Assembly: GCA_943737045.1 (NCBI GenBank)
Contig: CALSFV010000204.1
Location: forward strand, 1,839,501-1,903,500
Reading direction: 5' to 3'
From: Parapristionchus giblindavisi
Lineage: Eukaryota > Nematoda > Chromadorea > Rhabditida > Diplogasteridae
Length of the DNA stretch: 64,000 nucleotides
Part shown: one piece after another, positions 10,177-50,699 of the stretch
How the letters are laid out: each line of letters starts with the position of its first letter
Numbering within the stretch: position 1 is the stretch's first letter
Translations under genes and position numbers: made by a program
The notes under the pieces: model-generated
What the model saw: only the letters and a program-made list of their open reading frames with translations
Told to the model about the DNA's origin: nothing
The model's database searches: none

Positions 10177-13100
10177 TTAAATTCGCACAAACCCCTTTCT
10201 GGATCCTTTATGGCCTCCCGTCGTCTTGGCCTTCGCTGAAAAAAATTAGATAACACTTAGAAGATATCAGTAAATCGTCATTGGCAGAAGAGAATGAACG
10301 ACGAATTGTTTACGACAGTAGTGAGCCTTGTGTGACTTCATCAAGCCTACACCAATTTGTACTTTTGTGGCATTCATTCCATCTCGAAGGGATCTATGGT
10401 TGATGATTGTATTGTAAAAAAGCTACGGACCTAGATCTTGCCGAGCTCCACCCCATTTCGATGGCAGCAAATCAGGATGATTGAAGAGTGCGGCAATCAT
10501 GTGCTCGCGAGCCTGAAAAGTACGTAACGCCCAAATGAAGCTCCGCCCATACAAAGCTCCGCCCAGATCGAGCACTGCTCACATGAAACTACATAGATTT
10601 TCCGGAAAAGGGAGCTCCGCCCATTTAAAATGGCACCATCCAATTCTGTAACGGGACGTTCTACAGCGACAGCTGTGTTTTGATCTGTTAACGTATGTTG
10701 TAGACACGCAAAAATGGCCAGTGATCCAGAATATTTGAGTGTGAGATACAGAACGTGCCGTTCAGAAATAGAAAATTTGCTAATGAATGGGATAGTGCCT
10801 CGAGCTGTATCCACATGAAGCTCCGCCCAAATGAAGCTACTACAAAATCAAGCTCCGCAAACAACTGTGGTATACCTCAATTCGATTCTCCATGAATGCC
10901 TTCAAATCGGTCGAGATGCCTTCGTCTAAATCATCGGCACGAAAATGTATCGTATCGAGGACGAAATTCATCGCGCGTACGAGCAGATCGATAATCTAAG
11001 AAAGATCAAAGATCAAAGATCAATCAATAGTTGCCTAAAAATCAAAGATCAAAGATCAAATATGCCAACATGCTGTGGTGGCTGCTCATGCAGTGCGGCG
11101 CCTCCGCTTTCGAAGAACTTCCGAAGTCTCTCACTATGCTCGAAGCGCAGAGCGTTCTCCAGATAATGGTTGCTGCAATTTAATAATTCAAATATCCATC
11201 CAAAAATATAATTCAAATTTTCCTCAAAAAACAGAATTCGAATTTCCCTCCAAAAACAGAATTCGAATTTCCCTCCAAAAATAGAATTCAAATTTCCATC
11301 CAAAACAGAATTCAATTTCCCTCCAAAAATTCGCCCAACCGTTTCAATATCTTCATAAGCTTCTTGGCCTTCTCGTACTTGGGATTCGGTGCCTGAAATA
11401 ATTATTACATTTTACAGTATGTAATGTATGTTCCCTTCACAAAGTACAGTATTCTACCGTATACCTCTTTCGGGTCTTTAAGATATTTGTTCTTTCCTTT
11501 CGACTTAGACTCGCTTCGGTGTCGCTTGTGCTTGCCCTGAAATTAAAAAAAAGCTTCTTGTCTTCCGCTTTTATCGTCCCATGATCCGGCACCTTTGCAG
11601 CGGTGCCACTCTGGAAGTTCAAATTTTACAGTTTGAATAAAATACGTCTGTGACTTGAAGTTTACTTTTTTCAAGTGAAAGAGCATTTGGCGTAATGCAT
11701 TACAGTATATTATACATCACAACACTTGAAGTAGACTTACAAGTCTACTTCAACTGAAAATAAAAATACACGTTTAGTTTTGAAATACCAGAGCAGGAAC
11801 GGTTGCGGTTCCGGTTAAAGGTCCGGATAAATTTCCGGACTGAGTCAGAGTTGACAAGGTGGACAGGGTTGAGAGCGTCGAAGTTCCTGTGTCTTCCTGG
11901 AAAAAAAATTATATTAACATATGATTATTATAAAAAGATTAGATATCGAATATCCATGGTTGGTGGTCTCTCCTATTTCACAAATATCTCTCTGTGCTTT
12001 GTCCGAGCATTCTGAGACCGTAGGTCGCGATTCCATTTTATGTACAGTAGTTTCCTTACAATAGTTCCTTCTAAAGTGGCATCCACGGCCTCCTCCGAAC
12101 TTGCGGTTTTCCATTGGAGCTTACGAGTTTTGACCCTGAAAACAATGCATGTGCTTATGAGCTCTCCACACCTTGTAATGAGCTTTACGCAGATTCGCTC
12201 ACACAAAGCAAAGGAACTGTGAGATATTTTGGTATCATAACGTGTTTTATTATTCTAATTTCTAATTTAATAATTTAATATTAATTATTATAATTTATAA
12301 TAATTATAATAGATTACTGTACCTGAAATTGGTTGGCACTACATCTGCGGTGTTTCCAATGTTCTCAAAGCTCTCCATCTCGGAATCGATGTTCTGCATC
12401 TGCGAGACGACCGGAACATTCTGCCTGCAGTGGGGCGAATGAGAGGAGTCGGAGCTCTCGTAGAGCTCATAGAGCCAGAATTAGAGGTGTCGTAGCTCTG
12501 CCAGAGCTCATAGAGGTCGAATTAGACGAGTCGGAGCTCTGCCAAAGCTCCTAGAGCTAGAATTAGATGAGTCGGAGCTCTGGAAGCGCTCATAGAGCTC
12601 ACCATTTCGTGTTCGTGTTCTTCTTACAGGACCTTAGCCAAGTAGGTTGCTTGATAGGCGACGCTTCTCCTGTTACATAATTCCGTTATATGAGCAGTAG
12701 AAGTTTTATAATATTATTTTGGAGATAAATATTTTTTCATCCGTAAAAGTCTATATCTACACAGTAAAATTGCTTATCAATAAGCCAATAATTCCCTGAC
12801 ACAGTCTCTTTACGGTCTTCTTCCCTTGAAGGAATTCGACCCTATTTCCTAACTATAAGGGAAGAATTCCATAGGAGACGATGTAAGGGAATTGTTTCTC
12901 TTTGTGTTTCTTTAATCGGTTTGATAAATCGCTAATGTTATGGCGCAAACGCTGATTAATAATGATGTTGGACCTGCACCTTCGGAGCTGCCGGATGAAG
13001 CTGCGGAACCGGCTGATGAGCTGCAAAATGAGCGGAGTTAAGATTTTTAAAGAAGGGGACCCACGAGATTTTGGCTGCGCTATTGACATGAAGAACGTGG

Positions 13101-14520
13101 GACATAGGAAGTGACATCCTGTTCTTTATTACTAGGGAATGGTTTCTTTGATGGTTGAAATTACGGGGAGTGACCTACATAGTAATATTCAGCATGGTCG
13201 ACTTAGTAAGAATCAACTTTGAAAAGTTGCCATTGATCGATTTTTTAAACGAGATCCGTCGCATATCCGCCGCACGAAAGACAACCAAAAAAGATTTTTT
13301 GGACTTGATTTCCACTGAAACAGCATTTTTTTTGCTTGAGTTACCATGCAGACATGAAATGCTGTCGGGGGAATCGAACTCGTGTTCAAAAAGTGAAAAA
13401 TGAAAAAAAAATGCAACTTTTTGGCTGTCTTTCGTGCGGCGGATATGCGACGGGTTTCGTTTAAACAATCGATCAATGGCAACTTATCAAAGTTGATTCT
13501 TACTAAGTCGACCATGCTGAATCTTACTATGTAGGTCACTCCCCGTAATGTCAACCATCAAAGAAACCATTCCCTAGTTAGATTTGACTGGTTGAACGCG
13601 TAGAGCGTGTGGCTCAGTGGTTAGCAGTCAGCGCTTGCTTGTAACCGCGACACACGAGTTCGATTCCCGTTTGCAATTTTCTATACAGTTGTGCTTCAAT
13701 TTCAAAAACTCGCGCCTTTCCCTGGGCATATCAATGAACTTTAAGTCCGAATTACGGTATTCCGGGGCATCTAAAATTTTTAAAAAAATTGTTCTTGTAT
13801 ACAAGGAGATGTGATCAATTGTTCTGTCTGGCCAGTTTAGTCGCGAAAAAAATCGTGGGTTCCCTTCTTTAAAGGAGCATGGCCAGCCAATTTTACACTC
13901 TTTTATTGATCTATAGTTCGGCCTGACTAGAAATGGTTTTAGCAGACTAACATTCTCGAAATTCTAACATTTTGCTCTCTCTCTCTCTGAGCGGCCAATT
14001 TTCCAGAGAATAAAAGAGAATAATATAAAGAGAAATTAAACGAAAATATGTAATAAATTTGAAGTTAGTCCGGACTAAAATGGGCCACACGTTTCCAGAA
14101 CAAAATGGAAAATGCATGGGTGCTCTGGAATAAATTAGTCGAGATTAAATGCAACTTTAGTCGTGAACAATACGCGAATTAATTATTCAAGATAAAAATG
14201 AGAAAATGATTTTCTATATAATATCGATTCTGAAATATTTTTCGAAAACTTATAATAAGTATATTCTATTTGACACCACTACTGACCAGTTTCTACGTAA
14301 AGCTATGTATTAGTGGCAAAGTAGCAAATTTGTCTAGTGTTGTAGATTATAACGCATTGAGAGGATATTCTCCACGAACCTTGGTGGAATAGGACGAGGC
14401 TCCCGTGACTGCAGCTCTTGACCAATGCCAGGCATCGGCGACGCAGCAGGAGGAGCATCTTAAGACCAAAGATCAAAGATCAATTTCGTGATATCGAGAT
14501 TGAGACTTACCATGGCTCAT
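10177..14520 (-). CDS. Uncharacterised nematode protein, paralogue B
   Basis: Twelve exons splice in phase on the minus strand: 14511-14520, 14380-14458, 12323-12424, 12060-12135, 11789-11896, 11593-11610, 11465-11536, 11340-11392, 11070-11172, 10876-10995, 10431-10512, 10177-10235. They encode about 293 residues. The ATG is in a 10-nt first exon (MSH). The order is a Pro-rich N-terminus, VKTRKLQWKTASSEEAVDAT, a Thr/Ser/Leu low-complexity run, a Lys/Arg-rich run (KHKRHRSESKSKGKNKYL), then the four blocks shared with paralogue A: KYEKAKKLMKIL, NHYLENALRFEHSERLRKFF, IIDLLVRAMNFVLDTI and AREHMIAALFNHPDLLPSKW. No catalytic motif is evident, so I assign no function. The 1.96-kb second intron carries a TIR element and a SINE-like repeat. 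The last residues and stop fall in a copy of the foldback repeat, so the C-terminus may be repeat-derived. The exon at 11593-11610 is only 18 nt; the model could be slightly wrong there. Confidence 0.85.
12433..12603. repeat. ~42-bp imperfect tandem repeat, about four copies
   Basis: Units of the type gagtcggagctctgccaaag followed by ctcatagagctagaattag recur in the second intron of paralogue B, each containing short gagctc palindromes. Confidence 0.8.
13131..13577. mobile_element. TIR element in intron 2 of paralogue B
   Basis: Ends tagggaatggtttctttgat and its inverse form terminal inverted repeats of about 140 bp with few differences. The loop contains a gggggaatcgaactcgtgtt segment that resembles the complement of a tRNA T-arm. 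The apparent 82-113-codon frames on both strands are mirror images from the arms, not genes. Confidence 0.85.
13604..13875 (+). mobile_element. tRNA-headed SINE-like repeat
   Basis: A tRNA-like head (13604-13672) has an A-box-like tggctcagtggttag and a B-box-like gagttcgattcccg, but the anticodon stem pairs poorly, so it is not a functional tRNA. It is followed by about 190 bp (from ttctatacagttgtgcttca to gtgggttcccttctttaaag) that recurs almost unchanged without the head at 30910-31109. Confidence 0.7.
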
Positions 14521-16990: not shown

Positions 16991-18870
16991 AGCCTTAGTC
17001 TAAGCTTTAGAATTATTATTAAACCTATTGTTAGCCTTGGTATTAAACTTAGCCTTAGCCTTACTGCTCCAGAGTTAAAGGTAGTTAGCGATCCCCGATG
17101 AGAATGATTGCTAAATTGTTCGAAAGATATTCGCTGAATAGCCATAGTGACTGTTTCGATGTGTTGAACGTTAACTGATCAATTAGCTCGATGTTGTTAG
17201 TTTTACAAGGCGAATAAAATAGTGAGTCAATCTCTATCACCGACTGATATCAAGTTAGGCAATGTGTGAGATCAAAAGTTCATTGACAAGGGTGTATACT
17301 GTACTCGATGATACTGTATTAGTATACTGTATATTCTACTGTTATATAACTAAAATTAGATAGCGAGAGCGGAGAGTTTCAAATTAACTTGGGCCGTGCC
17401 TTTAAAGCACGTTTGAGGCAGTAGGAGAAGGTACCAGAGTGCGGTAAAATAAATATGTTTCACGAGTTGAAGAAAAGAATATAACAACTAAAATGTAATA
17501 ATGATTCGATTTTCGAGAAAACAAAAATATTTAAATTTAATAATTTATAATACATAGTAAGACTATCTATCCCATTCAAATCAGAATTTTTCACACTGGC
17601 CATCTTCTGCACTGCAGTCCACGAAAAAAACGTTAAGTTTATTGTTTTAACATGAGTCTACAACATGAGGACACGCCGTGCTAAATGAAACTCAGCAACG
17701 CTACCTCGCATTCTGCGTCTGAGAGAGAATATTACCAGAGCGGAGAGTTTCAAATTTAACATGAATGAACCACTCTCGATTTGTTATTGCGCACTCAACC
17801 TTGACTGGATTATACCGGAGTAGATGGACAAGGGTTGTTTCAGTGGGTTTGAACGAAGGTCACCTATGTAGATTTGTTGTGATAATGGAACCGATGTCGA
17901 GTTCAAACGTCCCTAAACTAAAGAAATGACAATGTGGTTCGAAAAAACTGTGGGTTTGTCACCTTCTTTTTTGTTTGATACTTTGTATCATAGGTGATTG
18001 TGAATGCGGAACCGTTCTGTATCCAATTGATATACGAACAAGATATGGAGATATTTCAAATAGAGATTTGAGATATCGGAGATATGAGGAGATATGGTGA
18101 TCCCTCGCATGGAACCTCAACGATTTCAGTCCTAAATTATTATTTTTTAAATACAGTTGAAAATTCTGTCCGAGTCAAAGGAATACCCAAGCTGTCTGTC
18201 CAAATTTGCAAAGTTTCAATCAGAAAGCGGATCCTATAATTAGCTCATGATGCTACTTTAACGTAAGCAGATGGAACAATGTGATCAAGCGGAAACCGAT
18301 CAGTTACCACAACAAAATCGTTACAACACACATCTTGATATTCACCAAAACTTATATTCTTCTACTGCATACTTAACCCAATTCGCTCTAATGAAACCCA
18401 TTTGGGACGGTGTTTACAAAGTTTCTTGAAAGAGCGTAAGTGCATTTTGGCCCAGTCAATGTTTTTCCCAAAGCCGATGAGAGGTCATTGACTTTGTAAC
18501 TCGGCTGACCTCTGCGAATGGAAGAGGAGTTACCGCGAAAAGTAGTTAGCAACCGAGGGACACACGATCATTGAAGAGACCGACAGAGAAAAAGAGGAAC
18601 GGTTATCTACTAAACCTATATCGCTGAAAGATGAAAAACACTGATTAGAAATATTGCGATAGAGTAAGAGACTAGAGAGCGAAGGGTTCGAAGAGTATCC
18701 AGACGGCTAGAGTGTGCTAGAGAAACTACCTCGATTATTTGTTGTTCATGAAACAGTTAGGGAGCACCTGCGAGATAGTGTGTGCAATCATGAGGGTGGC
18801 AGACGGCTCGAGAGCGGGCGAGAGTGCACGGCGAAGCGAGAGGGCAGCATTACTGCAGTAAGCACGCACT
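16991..18870. other. Intergenic region upstream of the collagen gene
   Basis: Contains ccttagccttag-type short repeats (16976-17065), partial foldback-repeat copies near 17340-17420 and 17700-17790, and gagatat-type repeats near 18040-18100. No coding exon recognised. Confidence 0.5.
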
Positions 18871-18874
18871 GTCG

Positions 18875-18882
18875 TATATAAG
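18875..18882 (+). promoter_or_regulatory. TATA box of the collagen gene
   Basis: tatataag lies about 330 bp upstream of the collagen ATG. A donor-like aag|gtaggt near 18934 and an acceptor directly before the ATG (19206) suggest a short non-coding first exon and a 5'-UTR intron, or alternatively a trans-splice acceptor at the ATG. Confidence 0.6.
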
Positions 18883-19206
18883 GGCGGTTAGCTGATCGGC
18901 AAGCAGACTCGTCTTGTGTCTCTTCCTCTCAAGGTAGGTCTCAAACCGATCTTTCGTTACCGTATGTCGATTATCGTAGCCGCGAATCATACTGTATTTT
19001 GTAACCTGGAATATAGTAATAAGTAAATTACATATTTAAATAATTTATGCTGATCATCGAAATAGAGTAACCATGCAGTAAATTAATGCTATAGAGATCT
19101 TTCATAAACGTGAAATAGTTGATAAGTGGAGCCGGGGAATAGTAAAACCCGAGTTATAGTCGGGAAATAGTTTTTAAAAAAACCACAGTAACCCCATATT
19201 ATACAG

Positions 19207-26270: not shown

Positions 26271-26960
26271 CGTCGTGGACTCTACGAGACAGCCACAACA
26301 CCTGACCATGCCCTTGGTATTTGCTTACTTATTTATCATCATATCACTAACGCGTTCCCTAGGGCTTGTATCTGACTGCAACCCCTGGCGGATAGAGGGA
26401 GTGAGAGAGTATGGTCAGAGCGGACAGTCGGGATACTGTTTGTTACATACAGTGTTATTATATATTGATAAATATAGTCACTATGGAAACCCGCTCACGA
26501 TGCAATTATTAGCAGAAATTCTTGAGTTATGAATCTCCAAAGCAATGCCAGAGAAAGTGCAAACACGTAGCCACGGCTCTAGTTTCATATATTTTTCTTG
26601 CACTCGAACACTTTGTACTTGTTGAAACACCCTTGCATTGTACGATAAATAAAATTAAAATATAAAATAGTCATGCCCTCCGGCAGCGCCAGACATTGCG
26701 CATGACTATTACAAATGCTATTTCGAGAATTAATGAGATCTGCAATATTTTCTCCCAGACCATTGCAAGCTAGACAGTCATGCTGTAAGTAAGATTTTCA
26801 AATCTTTGAAGAAAAATACTCTTTTTTCAGCTTACACCGAAAACCAGTGGCTTGAAATTACCATAAAAAATATGTAAAAAATATCTTCATATTACAGGGA
26901 GAGAACGAACGTGCGCTCCATGCCTATCTCCTTAAAGCAACTACTTCGAATGACCGTCAG
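26271..26960 (+). other. Two orphan exon-like segments
   Basis: 26271-26318 is bounded by ctttcag| and |gtattt, is 48 nt long and open in two frames (AVVDSTRQPQHLTMPL in phase 0). 26898-26960 is bounded by attacag| and |gtatct, is 63 nt long, and reads GENERALHAYLLKATTSNDR in phase 0. Together they splice in frame. I found no start, stop or neighbouring exons and recognise no family; they may be remnants of a gene broken by the palindromic elements on the right. Confidence 0.3.
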
Positions 26961-33700: not shown

Positions 33701-36700
33701 ATTTTTTTCTGAACTGAAAATAAACTATGCCAGGAATGGAGGCAGCGAGTACGGTCACTGCAGCTGCAAAGTCCGTAACCGTCGTTTGCTCTACGCCCGA
33801 GCCGCTGCCGGTCTTTGGCACCGACGTCGGAAAGGCGGTCCGAACGGTACGGTGGATCATGGGGTAGCACTGACCAATCGATGTCTTGCAGTATTTCGAA
33901 TCAAAGGGAGTCAAGATTATTACCAACGCACGTGTGGAGCGTTTAGAAGGCAAGAACGGTCATGTCTCCGAGGTAACTTCCTTAAAATATTTGTAATATT
34001 TCACAGAATTCATAAAATACGAGTCTAAAGATATTCTTGTATTCTCATGTTCTGAAATTCTCCAATAAGAAAAGGGTCATTTAGCCTGAATAAAGTGACG
34101 AAAAACTCTAAGCTGAATTTTTTAGCCTTAATCGACGTCCCTTCTTGTTTCGTTTCAAAAAATATGGACATAAATATTAAAAATATTCGTATTATATTAA
34201 TTTCATTTTTATTCCAGGTCGTTCTGCAAGACGGCACTCGTGTACCCGCTCACTGCGTCATTGCAGGAATAGGTTCCTTTTTTTAAATTTAAATCCCGAG
34301 CTAATTTGAAACTATCTGCCCATACTCTCTCGCATCCTTTGTCTGCGAGAGAGAGTGTTGCCAGAAGGCGAGAGATAAATGGGCTCGGGTTGAGTCTTTC
34401 AAACTTGATTGGCATAAATATCATTGATTATAGGAATCGAACCCGACACGCAATGGGTGAAGAATCACCAGATCCAATTGGACAAGCGAGGATACATAAT
34501 GGTGATTGCAAAATGGATTTTGATCTTTGATCTTTGAACTTGGTCAGGTCAACGAGAAGTTCGAGACGAATCTGAAGGACGTGTTGGCCATCGGTGACGT
34601 CGTCTCCGCTCCCCTTCCCTACTGGAACATTCCGTCTCTGAATATTCAGCACTTCCAAGTCGCGCAAAGACACGGTATGGTCCCATAGAGGAGAATTCAT
34701 ATGTTTCAAATCTTTAAAGCGACACCCCAAGCTAATTTGAAACTCTCCGCTCTGGCCACGCTCTCTCGTTTTCTTTGTCTGCGAGAGAGTATTGCCAATG
34801 CTGAGAGTAAAATTAGCTTGGGGTGTGCCTTTAAAACTTCTCCGGCCGAGCCATCTCACTCTGTTTTTGTTATTTATCTGGGTCTTGAATACAGTATCAA
34901 GCACTGAGGCAACAGAAATTCAAAATCTCGTGAAATATATTTTGCTTCACCACTCACGTGCACACTTTCACTTATTTAGGCCAACTCGCTGCCTGGTCCA
35001 TGTTGGGCAAACCTCAGCCCGGCAAGCTCATTCCATTCTTCTGGTCTCTGTTCTTCTTCGAAAGGGCCATTTCCTTTGCTGGTAGGGCTCTTTATAATTT
35101 AAATAAATTTTAAAATCAAAAATTTTAAATTTTGAAACAAGCTAAAATTGTAGGTAGCTCGGAGGGCTACGATGAGATGTTCTGCAGAGGCGAGGTGGAA
35201 GAGATGAAATACGTCAAATACTACCTAAAGTGCGTTTGATTCTTTCTCTATTTTACGCCTTACCAAAAGACTAGATCATGCGGTGAAGTAGGTCCGAAGA
35301 AGAGATTCGGCCTTCCGGACTGAATTGTCCTTGCAATTATCACTACTGACCAACACCCGCCGGACTTTGTGTGCCCCCCACGGCCTTTACCTTCACCTTT
35401 TGCCAAAAGAGGGCTGGTGATGAAGAAAGGATCAAAGAAAGTAGATATCCTACCCAAGGACCAGTTACTATTATTGATCCTGATAAAGACACTAAACTGT
35501 ATCGAAACGATGGTATGCTCTGATTACTCTCTCGTAGGCAAAAAAGGGGGAGAGAGTGGAGAGTATCATGTTAGTTCTCGGTATGCCCTTGCGGGGGGGG
35601 GGGGGGATCATTTTGCCAACGGATCATAACTCGGTTATGAGATGGCCTATGGCAACAAAAGTTGTATCATTGCTATCAGTAGGGGTGTACGGAATTGGTC
35701 TACGGTAACCGTAGGAATCGCGAACTGATTTTTTCATTCGATCAATGATTCTCAACCATGGAGTTCATGGTTGAAAATTGCCGAAGTCGAAAAATTCATG
35801 ATACTCCGAGACCAAATAGTAGTTGTCATTATAGCAACAGCGAGCCAACTTTTATCTTTCTGGATACCGCAACCCTAACTACCGTAATCAAACCTTTATT
35901 TGCCTTTAATTTCGACATAATATTGTAGGGTACGGTAGCTATATTACTGTTAGGGATACTCCCTATCTCCATATACCCCAGGCTAACCGCCTCCCCTATT
36001 CCCCTTTTCCCCTTTTCGACCCCTAAACCCCTTTCCCTTTTGTTAGAATGATTTTTGCACCATATTGTACTTTCTTTGTTTTATAATTAGGTTACCCTGT
36101 TCTTGTCTTTCTTATCATTTTAATTTAATTAGTATTGCATATAAATAGAGGCTTTAAGCCTCTTTCATTTGGTCTTCCCTGTGTCTCTTCGCGCCCCTCT
36201 CTCTCGTCTCCCTCGTGTAGTTTGCGTTGTGTTGGTTGAAGATAAAGGTTTAAGGTAGTCTTGAGTATCTGTACTTAACCGCAAGTCTAAAGAACCCGGC
36301 CATTGTTATCATTACATGGGGGCCGAACCGACTCTTGCTTGTTAAGTACTTAGACTCTTGATTATCTTTGCCTTGCGAGGGTGGAGTGTAGTCGTGAGAG
36401 ACGTTAAGATCTTGAGGCTAAGAAGTCCAGCGAGACTAGAAAGCCAGTGTTGTTAAGATCTTGAAGCTAAGAAGTCCGGCGAGACTAGAAAGCCAGTGTT
36501 GTGTAGATCTTGAGGCTAAGAAGTCCAGCGAGACTAGATAGCCAGTGTTGTGTAGATCTTGAGGCTAAGAAGTCCAGCGAGACTAGATAGCCAGTGTTGT
36601 GTAGATCTTGAGGCTAAGAAGTCCAGCGAGACTAGATAGCCAGTGTGGTGTGGCGATATTGAGACTAGGAAGTCTTAGAAGACTTGGAAGTCCGTGAGGT

Positions 36701-39700
36701 GGGAATGTGGTGAAGTGTTGAGATCTGAGGTGTGGAGATCTGGAGGTAGCCTTGAGGTGCTACGGTCTTGAGTTGTGACCTTGAGGTGTTAAGGTGTGGT
36801 GGTGTTGTGGTTTTGAGACGTTGAGGTGTGGAGTTGTTGAGGTCTTGAAGTTTGGAGGTCTCTCGCGGAGTCTGGAGACGTGAAGTTGTTGTGGTCTTAA
36901 GGTGTGAAGGCACTGAAGTATTGAGTAGTTGAGGTGCCACAGTAAATTATTGTGATTAGTTATCGTGTGGTGATATCGATTGAAATTTTTTGTTGTGTGA
37001 TAGGGAGGATATGTTTCAACAGACCGAATGTAAACAACTGGTGAATGTGGAGATGTTTAAAGAGTGTGTGCAGATGATGATCAATTCAAATGTTGAAAGT
37101 GTTAAGGCGATGAGAAAGAGTAATGAACAAGCGCGTTTATCTATGCTTACTCCTTTGGGTAATTTTCATGCCAATAAAGATGAGAGATTCGATATGTTCA
37201 AGAGGCAATTCACTTTGCGTTTCAAACATTTAGATGATCATTCACGCATTTCTTATTTTGAATCATTCTTGAGAGGAAGAGCTAGTGATATCTGGAAAAC
37301 TATGCCAAGTACTATACAAAGGAGAGAGAATTATGGAGAGATAATAGGCTGGTTTGAGGATAAACTAGATGGAATATATGATGCTCGGGTAGATGATGTC
37401 GTTGGTTATAATAAGGAACATGTGAACAGAGTGAATGGTAGTCTAAATCATTCAAAGGATGATGGAAGACGGGTTGATAAGTATTATGTTGATAATGTAT
37501 GTAGGCGTAATTATGACTATCTAACTCGAAACAGTAGATTAAATAATAATATTATCGATCAAAGTTTTCTAAGAGGGAGGGATATGAATGATGATTTTCA
37601 TACCGATATTTGTTCGAATTGTGGTGGAAAAGGTCATATTGTTAATGGATGTCCATCTATAGTATATTATGGTTATTATGGGAATTATGGTTATGGAATG
37701 AAGCGTAAAAGTCGTCAAGGTTACAGTAGTCAGAGACGATACGATAGAACTGAACAAAAAGTCAAACCAGCAAATAGGAGTGGTGCTAAAATTGTTGGTC
37801 ATTTGAAGAATTTCGTGAATTGTAATAATAGTAAGATTGATAATCAACCAGTAATTGGGAAGAATGATTTGTGTGCGCTTGGTGTCAGTAGTACTGTTAG
37901 TGATAATGAAGTGAAAAGAGAAAGAATAGAGGATAAAGGAGTTGATTGTGATAAGAATGAACTATTTCACCTATTTCATGAGTATGAATTTAATGGAAAT
38001 CGTGATCATTGTATGCATGACAAGAGTATTATGTGCACTAACCATGAGAATAATGTAGTCGTGAATAAGAATAAGGAAGATACAGTACCAAAGGTGCTTT
38101 TGCAAGATGTCGATGAACGAGAATTGGATCATGTGGTAGGGAATCAGAGAAGTACTGTAAATGAGATTACTGTATTAAAGAAGTCAACGATCGATCATGG
38201 TGATATTCAAGAAAAATCTGAAAATCTGGTGAATATTGATTGGACTAGTGTAAAAAGGAAGGATCCCCAAAAGGATAAAAGATGTGAGAATAAGGATGAA
38301 ATCGATGAGAGTAAGGTGGATCATCGGAGTGATAAGGAGAGCAAAGATGATGATAATGATAATCAAATTAATTTAGTAGATCAAGAATGTGATAAAAAAG
38401 AAGAAAATGGTCAAATTGATGAGAAATTGTGTATGGTAGAACACGTAGCGTCTGATCATAAGAAGAACACTTGTGTTGGATCAGAGAACATTCGGGAAGT
38501 AATGATTTGTAAGGTTTCTAAAAGAACTAACAAAGTTATCAGTATAGGAAAAGGTGTAGATCAATACGGTAGATTCGGTGGTAATCAATACAATGGTGTG
38601 TCGCGATACGGTTGTTGGAATCGTACCGCATGGAGAAAAGTCCGTAGTAGATTGAAATCTTATTATGGTCAGAAAAGAGGACATGTTAATCCAGGTGGAA
38701 GTTTCATGTGGAGAGGATATATTGTGAAGAGTAACTTGAAATACTGTAAGGGTGCAGTGATTGACAGAGGTCGTGAAGAAGATTGCCCCATGGGTCCATC
38801 TGATATTGATAATGATTGTGGATATCCACTGAACAGTGAGGGTATCAATCAAGATTCTGTAAGACATCGTAATGAAGTCATATCTCCATATGAAGGTGCA
38901 AAGGAAGAAATCAGAATGTCGAAGTCCGAAGAACTACTGAATTCGATAGAAGATCGTCTAGAAGAAAGAAGAATCGTCTATGAGCCAGGAGGCTCATTTT
39001 CGCAGGAGGAGGGAGATGTTAGGGATACTCCCTATCTCCATATACCCCAGGCTAACCGCCTCCCCTATTCCCCTTTTCCCCTTTTCGACCCCTAAACCCC
39101 TTTCCCTTTTGTTAGAATGATTTTTGCACCATATTGTACTTTCTTTGTTTTATAATTAGGTTGCCCTGTTCTTGTCTTTCTTATCATTTTAATTTAATTA
39201 GTATTGCATATAAATAGAGGCTTTAAGCCTCTTTCATTTGGTCTTCCCTGTGTCTCTTCGCGCCCCTCTCTCTCGTCTCCCTCGTGTAGTTTGCGTTGTG
39301 TTGGTTGAAGATAAAGGTTTAAGGTAGTCTTGAGTATCTGTACTTAACCGCAAGTCTAAAGAACCCGGCCATTGTTATCATTACATTACGGTAGTTCGGG
39401 TTACGATACTCAGAAAGATAAATGTTGGCTCACTGTTGATATAATAGCACATAGTATTTGGCATTGGATCATCATGAATTTTCGACCTCAGCCATTCTCA
39501 ACCACGAATCAACCAGGGTCATGGTTGAGAATCATGGATTGACTGAAAAAAATCAGTTCTCGATTCCTGACGGTTACGGTACTCCAATACCTTACACTCC
39601 TACTCATAACAATGACACTACTTTTGTTGCCATAGGCCATCCCCCAACCGATTTAGGATCCCTTGGCGAAATGATCACCTCCCCCCTGCCTTGTTACCCT

Positions 39701-41111: not shown

Positions 41112-41183
41112 AGGGGGCACCCGGATTTGAACCGGGGACCTCTCGATCTGCAGTCGAATGCTCTGCCACTGAGCTATACCCCC
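41112..41183 (-). tRNA. tRNA-Cys (GCA)
   Basis: 72 nt, no intron. The acceptor GGGGGTA pairs with TGCCCCC, the D arm is GCTC...GAGC, the anticodon loop is CTGCAGA (GCA), and the T arm CCCGG TTCAAAT CCGGG is fully paired. It forms an inverted pair with the copy at 41312. Confidence 0.96.
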
Positions 41184-41311: not shown

Positions 41312-41383
41312 GGGGGTATAGCTCAGTGGCAGAGCATTCGACTGCAGATCGAGAGGTCCCCGGTTCAAATCCGGGTGCCCCCT
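41312..41383 (+). tRNA. tRNA-Cys (GCA)
   Basis: Identical in sequence to the minus-strand copy 128 bp to its left, with all arms paired. Confidence 0.96.
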
Positions 41384-50627: not shown

Positions 50628-50699
50628 AGGGGGCACTCGGATTTGAACCGGGGACCTCTCGATCTGCAGTCGAATGCTCTGCCACTGAGCTATACCCCC
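50628..50699 (-). tRNA. tRNA-Cys (GCA), third copy
   Basis: Same 72-nt gene as at 41312 with one change in the T stem (CCGAG for CCGGG, leaving a mismatch). Its 5' flank matches that of the 41312 copy and its 3' flank matches that of the 41112 copy. Probably functional but slightly diverged. Confidence 0.9.

What the first reader, a model, noticed from the sequence alone, without database searches (positions are those of the whole stretch)
35948..39385. Gag-only LTR retrotransposon, apparently very recent
Complete LTRs of equal length with one visible difference, a 4-bp duplication, PBS-like and PPT sites, and a single long Gag frame with a zinc knuckle but no pol. This is the TR-GAG class described mainly in plants. 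A nematode example with an intact gag, a 49-bp tandem leader and a gag stop inside the right LTR would be notable. The large Asn/Asp/Lys-rich C-terminal region of Gag is also unusual.
Basis: partly seen in the sequence, partly recalled or inferred. Interest (0 to 1): 0.8.

Follow-up and report, generated by a model that had tools for sequence, protein, structure and literature searches.

The report
Gag-only jumping element in a roundworm
This is a recently moved piece of retrovirus-like DNA in what looks like a roundworm genome that kept only part of its shell-protein gene; it belongs to a family of such copies that seem to be moved by the enzymes of a rare complete relative.

Summary
Window 35948-39385 is a complete LTR element (LTR 369 bp, one mismatch, TTAC duplication, PBS, 49-bp leader repeats, PPT) with one 694-aa frame and no pol, inserted in a repeated palindrome. 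It is not a one-off deletion: at least 27 places carry the same gag-only body, 23 of 27 in one unbroken frame. All 17 copies measured have exact 4-bp duplications; 12 of 17 LTR pairs are identical. Two copies with identical 3,023-bp interiors sit at different sites. A pol-bearing Ty3/gypsy relative, C564 (2187-aa frame; RT, RNase H, integrase), shares LTR termini, U5 end, PBS and leader repeats; among the RT matches scored only two others are close. TR-GAG-like mobilisation in trans is well supported but not shown directly. Correction: the Gag is not a whole capsid protein. It lacks the N-terminal region and the C-terminal half of the capsid, and carries a C-terminal region shared with larger Gag-protease frames; the three of those read in part have no RT domain. 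Gag-only elements are on record for animals: a title cited in PMC3286476 names CM-gag in Culex. Moderate interest: a frame-keeping, truncated-Gag family in one nematode genome.

The parts
35596..35888 (.). left arm of the palindromic (MITE-like) repeat into which the element inserted
   Evidence: inverted-repeat arms I1-I4; repeated genome-wide, 40 of 1967 candidates scored
35944..35947 (.). target-site duplication TTAC, left
35948..36316 (+). 5' LTR, 369 bp
36317..36329 (+). primer-binding-site-like TGGGGGCCGAACC; primer tRNA not identified
   Evidence: conserved in relatives; tRNA pattern search empty
36407..36674 (+). 5.4 tandem copies of a 49-bp unit in the leader, shared with the pol-bearing relative C564
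37011..39095 (+). single open frame, 694 aa, truncated Gag with C-terminal extension, stop inside right LTR
37116..37376 (+). N-terminal half of the capsid region (about aa 36-122); 73% identical to C564 Gag over aa 16-123
37611..37652 (+). CCHC zinc knuckle CSNCGGKGHIVNGC (aa 201-214)
38286..38852 (+). domain X (aa 426-614), also in larger Gag-protease frames elsewhere in the genome (866-1298 aa in the six named in the report)
39004..39016 (+). polypurine tract AGGAGGAGGGAGA
39017..39385 (+). 3' LTR, 369 bp
39386..39389 (.). target-site duplication TTAC, right
39385..39686 (.). right arm of the interrupted palindromic repeat

Best explanation
The element is one copy of a non-autonomous, gag-only LTR retrotransposon family (TR-GAG-like) of the Ty3/gypsy group in a nematode. 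Shown by sequence: complete ends, PBS, PPT and leader; a gag-only family whose frame is kept; recent insertion at many sites with 4-bp duplications; a rare pol-bearing relative with matching ends. Inferred: its transcript starts in the 5' LTR, its own truncated Gag is made and co-assembles with Gag of a C564-type partner through the shared capsid half, the zinc knuckle and the shared leader bring its RNA into those particles, and the partner's reverse transcriptase and integrase copy and insert it, using the shared PBS, PPT and LTR termini. Also inferred: the family arose from a pol-bearing ancestor by loss of the N-terminal Gag region, the capsid C-terminal half, protease and RT-RNaseH-integrase, and then diversified by itself.
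For: Family: 27 places match 359-694 aa of the window frame from residue 1, 23 of 27 in one open frame of 622-795 aa without a stop (64 of 335 candidates scored). Movement: 17 of 17 measured copies have exact 4-bp duplications and 12 of 17 LTR pairs are identical; L056 and L057 are identical over 3,023 internal bp at sites with different duplications; L023 and L027 differ by 1 in 2,835. No RT: tblastn of the C564 pol piece against the 64 other sequences held hits only L062 and L063, each over residues 2-79 at most, upstream of the RT domain. Frame kept: 321 of 387 gaps in the ORF are multiples of three against 46 of 288 in the leader; with gaps under 30 nt only, so that the 49-mer copy number does not count, 264 of 311 against 35 of 249. 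Random placement of half the observed differences leaves no stop in at most 0.7% of 1,000 trials for each of 16 pairs. Partner: C564 has RVT_1, RNase H and integrase domains in one 2187-aa frame, LTRs 100% identical, duplication AGCC, the same PBS, leader repeats at up to 92% and the U5 end at 85%.
Against: No pol-bearing element with the window's U3 was found; C564 shares only short U3 pieces and about 107 bp of U5, so the true helper could be another element or one missing from the assembly; RT and LTR searches scored only part of their candidates (46 of 493; 40 of 180). Pooled pN/pS is only 0.78 (0.61 in the capsid half, 0.87 in domain X, 1.23 over aa 621-660), weak for strict purifying selection. 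The Gag lacks the capsid C-terminal half, so it may not assemble. No primer tRNA was identified. There is no expression evidence. The window copy has no near-identical sibling in the list: the nearest copy with a full-length match is 77% identical and carries a stop.
Confidence: 0.76

Rival explanations
1. Passive hitch-hiker: the RNA is mobilised by partner Gag-Pol alone, and the gag frame is open only because the copies are young descendants of a few masters.
For: Weak pN/pS; 4 of 27 places are broken, one of them (L053) with both LTRs and a target duplication; the capsid is truncated.
Against: 16 copies differ from the window by 210-341 substitutions within the frame, yet most indels (321 of 387) keep frame and stops are avoided; the leader does not show this bias.
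Confidence: 0.17
2. One recent internal deletion of a single autonomous element, of no family standing.
For: Leader, capsid half and U5 end are homologous to a pol-bearing element.
Against: 27 places of the same body, near-identical copies at different sites, frame kept across up to 18.5% divergence.
Confidence: 0.02
3. A domesticated host gag gene flanked by LTRs.
For: Long kept frame; a separate tandem array on C19 of gag-X units in one 1945-aa frame looks like another fate.
Against: Exact target duplications and many recent insertion sites; it interrupts a MITE-like repeat.
Confidence: 0.03
4. Copies spread by segmental duplication or gene conversion, not retrotransposition.
For: Some copies sit in tandem-repeat neighbourhoods (L022, L023, L027, L030).
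Against: Different 4-bp duplications at near-identical copies.
Confidence: 0.02

Closest known systems
TR-GAG elements of plants (Chaparro et al. 2015; paper not held; known here from citing papers PMC6022998 and PMC8704663)
   Same: Two LTRs, single GAG frame, no pol; an Arabidopsis TR-GAG was shown to transpose and has a likely autonomous relative (abstract and passages of PMC8704663). Inpactor files GAG alone, or GAG plus protease, as TR-GAG (passage of PMC6022998).
   Different: Nematode host; Gag reduced to half a capsid plus zinc knuckle plus domain X; sits beside Gag-Pro and Gag-Pro-X classes with shared ends.
RLG_Quinta with its partner RLG_Cereba in Einkorn wheat (PMC11302176, passages)
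   Same: [quoted passage not shown] it shares LTR termini and PBS with the autonomous partner; it is thought to supply Gag while the partner supplies RT and INT.
   Different: No centromere targeting was examined here; C564 is rarer than its dependants among the places scored; the window Gag is truncated.
CM-gag of Culex pipiens (Bensaadi-Merchermek 1997; only the title seen, in the reference list of PMC3286476)
   Same: A repeated animal element said to contain only a gag gene.
LARD and TRIM elements
   Same: Pol-less LTR elements mobilised in trans (recalled).
   Different: By the Inpactor rule those carry no coding domain (passage); this one keeps a 694-aa frame.

Membership tests
TR-GAG (terminal-repeat retrotransposon with GAG domain) | two LTRs with target duplication, PBS and PPT | tested here: met
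TR-GAG (terminal-repeat retrotransposon with GAG domain) | single gag frame, no RT, RNase H or integrase | tested here: met
TR-GAG (terminal-repeat retrotransposon with GAG domain) | complete recognised GAG domain | tested here: inconclusive
   no Pfam gag family; zinc knuckle below cut-off; capsid half homologous to C564 Gag, the rest missing
TR-GAG (terminal-repeat retrotransposon with GAG domain) | multi-copy family | tested here: met
   27 places
TR-GAG (terminal-repeat retrotransposon with GAG domain) | transposition in trans shown directly | not testable with these tools
   only indirect: identical copies at different sites
Ty3/gypsy (Metaviridae) lineage | pol order RT-RNaseH-INT in the pol-bearing relative | tested here: met
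   for C564
Ty3/gypsy (Metaviridae) lineage | RT phylogeny of this element | not testable with these tools
   the window element has no RT
RLG_Quinta-like gag donor | shares LTR termini and PBS with an autonomous partner | tested here: met
   most of U3 differs
RLG_Quinta-like gag donor | supplies functional Gag to the partner | not tested
   needs proteomics or an assay
LARD/TRIM | no coding capacity | tested here: not met
   694-aa frame here; one open frame in 23 of 27 places

The most novel reading that the evidence does not exclude
The family does not supply shell protein. Its truncated Gag (capsid N-half, zinc knuckle, domain X) is a selected adaptor that puts its own RNA into particles built by the pol-bearing partner: a satellite-like parasite at the packaging step. 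The genome shows a graded series towards it: Gag-Pro-Pol, Gag-Pro-X, Gag-Pro and Gag-only, with dependants outnumbering RT-bearing copies.
Probability: 0.3. Interest if true: 0.72.

Novelty: new variant of a known kind. Interest (0 to 1): 0.52.

Why it matters
It documents, in an animal, a population of pol-less elements next to a rare pol-bearing relative, with copies young enough to follow in living strains. That makes two questions testable: what a non-autonomous element gains by keeping a Gag frame, and whether dependants in such excess hold back their helper.

Tried and rejected
Homologues of the window Gag and of the L029 Gag-Pro protein in the 5.8-billion-protein collection: none at E <= 0.001. 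Solved structures for a 170-aa stretch of the C-terminal region: none. The primer tRNA: a pattern with the full acceptor stem implied by the PBS gave 0 matches; the tRNA-Cys genes of the window do not fit, two of the three having been read. My idea that the stop inside the right LTR is inherited from the C564 pol frame was dropped: the C564 main frame stops before the PPT. Gag-Pro-X elements C6 and C217 do share the stop in the LTR. A protease remnant in the window frame was suspected from the alignment but BLASTP gave only 20-24 residues at E 0.42-0.89 (window 0.80), and no D[ST]GA motif is present in any of 19 gag-only copies. I took C217 for an autonomous partner of the Gag-Pro-X class; no Pfam family was found in its tail and its frame ends in the LTR. 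The C45 LTRs looked like parts of longer elements, but no family leader or gag lies near them in the stretches fetched. The odds were rescaled so that best reading and rivals add to one.
Full report
WHAT IS THERE. Window 35948-39385 (in G000:C204; the genome has 251 Mb in 703 contigs) is a 3,438-bp LTR element. Its LTRs are 369 bp with one mismatch, start TGTT and end TTACA, and are flanked by TTAC. Inside lie a PBS-like TGGGGGCCGAACC, a leader with 5.4 copies of a 49-mer, a single 694-aa frame and a purine tract against the right LTR. The element splits a palindromic repeat whose arms lie at 35596-35888 and 39385-39686. That repeat is common in the genome (1967 candidates, 40 scored), and in many of the scored places, for example on C42, C68 and C64, the sequence up to the insertion point runs straight into the opposite arm, as an empty site would.

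THE FAMILY. The LTR has many relatives (180 candidates, 40 scored). I fetched 20 stretches and later 10 more. The window Gag matches 27 places from its first residue; 23 of 27 are one open frame of 622-795 aa without a stop, and 4 are broken (C233, C289, C239, C285) (64 of 335 candidates scored, so a lower bound). Of 19 gag-only copies held, including the window, 17 keep a long frame; 16 of 19 stop 79-103 nt inside the right LTR, L021 stops 33 nt before it, and L053 and L055 are broken. L054 and L055 gave no PBS in the fetched stretch, so 17 copies were measured: 17 of 17 have an exact 4-bp duplication (15; L051 and L053 read from the ends printed). LTR mismatches were 0 in 12, 1 in 2 (window, L051) and 2 in 3 (L021, L025, L053); for L051 and L053 the script misplaced the right LTR end, which added 16 gap columns each. 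L056 and L057 have identical 3,023-bp interiors at sites with different duplications, and L023 and L027 differ by one base in 2,835. The window copy has no such twin in the lists; its gag stretches match other gag-only copies at about 75-94% DNA identity.

THE FRAME IS KEPT. In 31 pairwise alignments, 321 of 387 ORF gaps are multiples of three, against 46 of 288 in the leader (29 leader pairs). The leader holds 49-mers, so I repeated the count with gaps under 30 nt: 264 of 311 against 35 of 249. Placing half the observed differences at random leaves the window frame open in 0-0.7% of 1,000 trials for each of 16 comparisons. These comparisons share ancestry and are not independent. Pooled pN/pS over 19 copies, the two broken ones included, is 0.78; it is 0.61 in the capsid half, 0.80 over aa 126-199, 0.60 at the knuckle, 0.63 over aa 236-420, 0.87 in domain X and 1.23 over aa 621-660. 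So the frame is kept, but the protein sequence is only loosely constrained.

WHAT THE PROTEIN IS. Compared with the Gag of the pol-bearing relative C564 (piece L060), the window protein lacks the N-terminal region and, just after the shared WFEDK motif, the C-terminal half of the capsid; about 75 unrelated residues lead to the zinc knuckle. That these halves match the two capsid domains of known Gag proteins is inference. The match to C564 is 73% over aa 16-123. Residues 426-614 (domain X) recur at 41-47% in larger frames of 866-1298 aa at C204:1169470, C6, C65, C223 (two places) and C226, and in several other frames. These six frames also match the Gag-Pro protein L029 over its capsid and into its protease region. 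The region aa 241-620 is 9.5% N, 9.7% D and 10.3% K.

THE CLASSES. (1) Gag-Pro-Pol: C564, minus strand, LTRs at 18714-19166 and 26435-26887, 100% identical, duplication AGCC, frame 2187 aa with RVT_1, RNase H, integrase zinc-binding and core domains. (2) Gag-Pro-X: C6, C217 and C66 were read in part; the frames of C6 and C217 end inside the right LTR, and no RT domain was found in the parts read. C217 and C66 keep about the first 79 residues of the C564 pol piece, upstream of its RT domain, then pass into domain X, which points to in-frame deletion of the pol core. Other members of this class were not read. (3) Gag-Pro: 13 places at 90% identity or more over at least 714 residues of L029, 12 of 13 without a stop (60 of 186 candidates scored). 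L028 and L029 carry a knuckle and a protease-like region; their Pfam scores are below the cut-offs, but the D[ST]GA motif is present. (4) Gag-only, the window class. A 70-base stretch over LTR end, PBS and leader start is 97-99% identical to the Gag-Pro copies C391, C236 and C13 and 91% to C564 (40 of 59 candidates scored); 58 bp before the right LTR are 97-100% identical to Gag-Pro copies (40 of 43). The classes thus exchange parts or share ends by descent.

HELPERS. The C564 pol piece finds only two other close relatives: C165 (99%, fragments at a contig end) and C431 (84%, in pieces); the next are 45-48% (46 of 493 candidates scored). None of the listed RT places lies within 140 kb of a gag-only place. 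The full-length C564 LTR occurs only at its own two ends; about 100-107 bp of its U5 end recur at 83-87% in 13 further places on 9 contigs, the window's two LTRs among them. C564 is therefore the best helper candidate, not a proven one.

ORGANISM. 38 matches to SL2 RNA over the cut-off (48 of 23389 candidates scored; best E 5e-5), 0 of 14 control genomes. That SL2 marks rhabditid nematodes is recalled.

PRIOR WORK. The 12 TR-GAG papers listed all concern plants by title. PMC8704663 (abstract and passages) shows a TR-GAG insertion in Arabidopsis. PMC11302176 (passages) gives the closest model: a gag-only element that is thought to supply Gag while its partner supplies enzymes. PMC6022998 (passages) gives the classification rule. 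PMC3286476 (passages and one reference title) cites CM-gag of Culex. PMC12477816 and PMC6696364 were seen only where they cite the TR-GAG paper. In the listings (20 of 47 papers; 15 of 433; 15 of 15; 6 of 6; 6 of 6), I saw no title or abstract start that describes a gag-only element in a nematode; of these papers I looked inside PMC13195028 (passages), PMC3286476, PMC11302176 and PMC12477816. Most subscription papers are not held.

VERDICT. What is added is the family, the helper candidate, the evidence that the frame is kept, and the correction that the Gag is a truncated one, which makes the role of the protein a real question.

Noticed in passing
G000:C19:10875-16535 (L064 covers 12200-13800): At least four tandem 1,428-bp gag-X units lie in one 1945-aa open frame; the unit read has no CCHC motif. 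Array or assembly effect unknown.
   Followed up: partly
L031, L032 and L033 (C45), L063:2137-4320 (C66): A different Gag-protease frame (about 740 aa in L031 and L032, running off L033, 727 aa in L063) recurs; Pfam on the L031 frame gives DUF7083 and protease, no RT. In C66 it interrupts a Gag-Pro-X element. Its end resembles an integrase tail (recalled resemblance).
   Followed up: partly
G000:C13:571850-584177: Tandem copies, about 3.2-3.6 kb apart, of a 66%-identical Gag-Pro class.
   Followed up: no
window 41112-41183, 41312-41383, 50628-50699: Three tRNA-Cys genes; the first two are identical and face away from each other.
   Followed up: no
L031-L033 (C45:472500-504499): Several copies of the family's LTR without family leader or gag nearby sit among short repeated units.
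   Followed up: no
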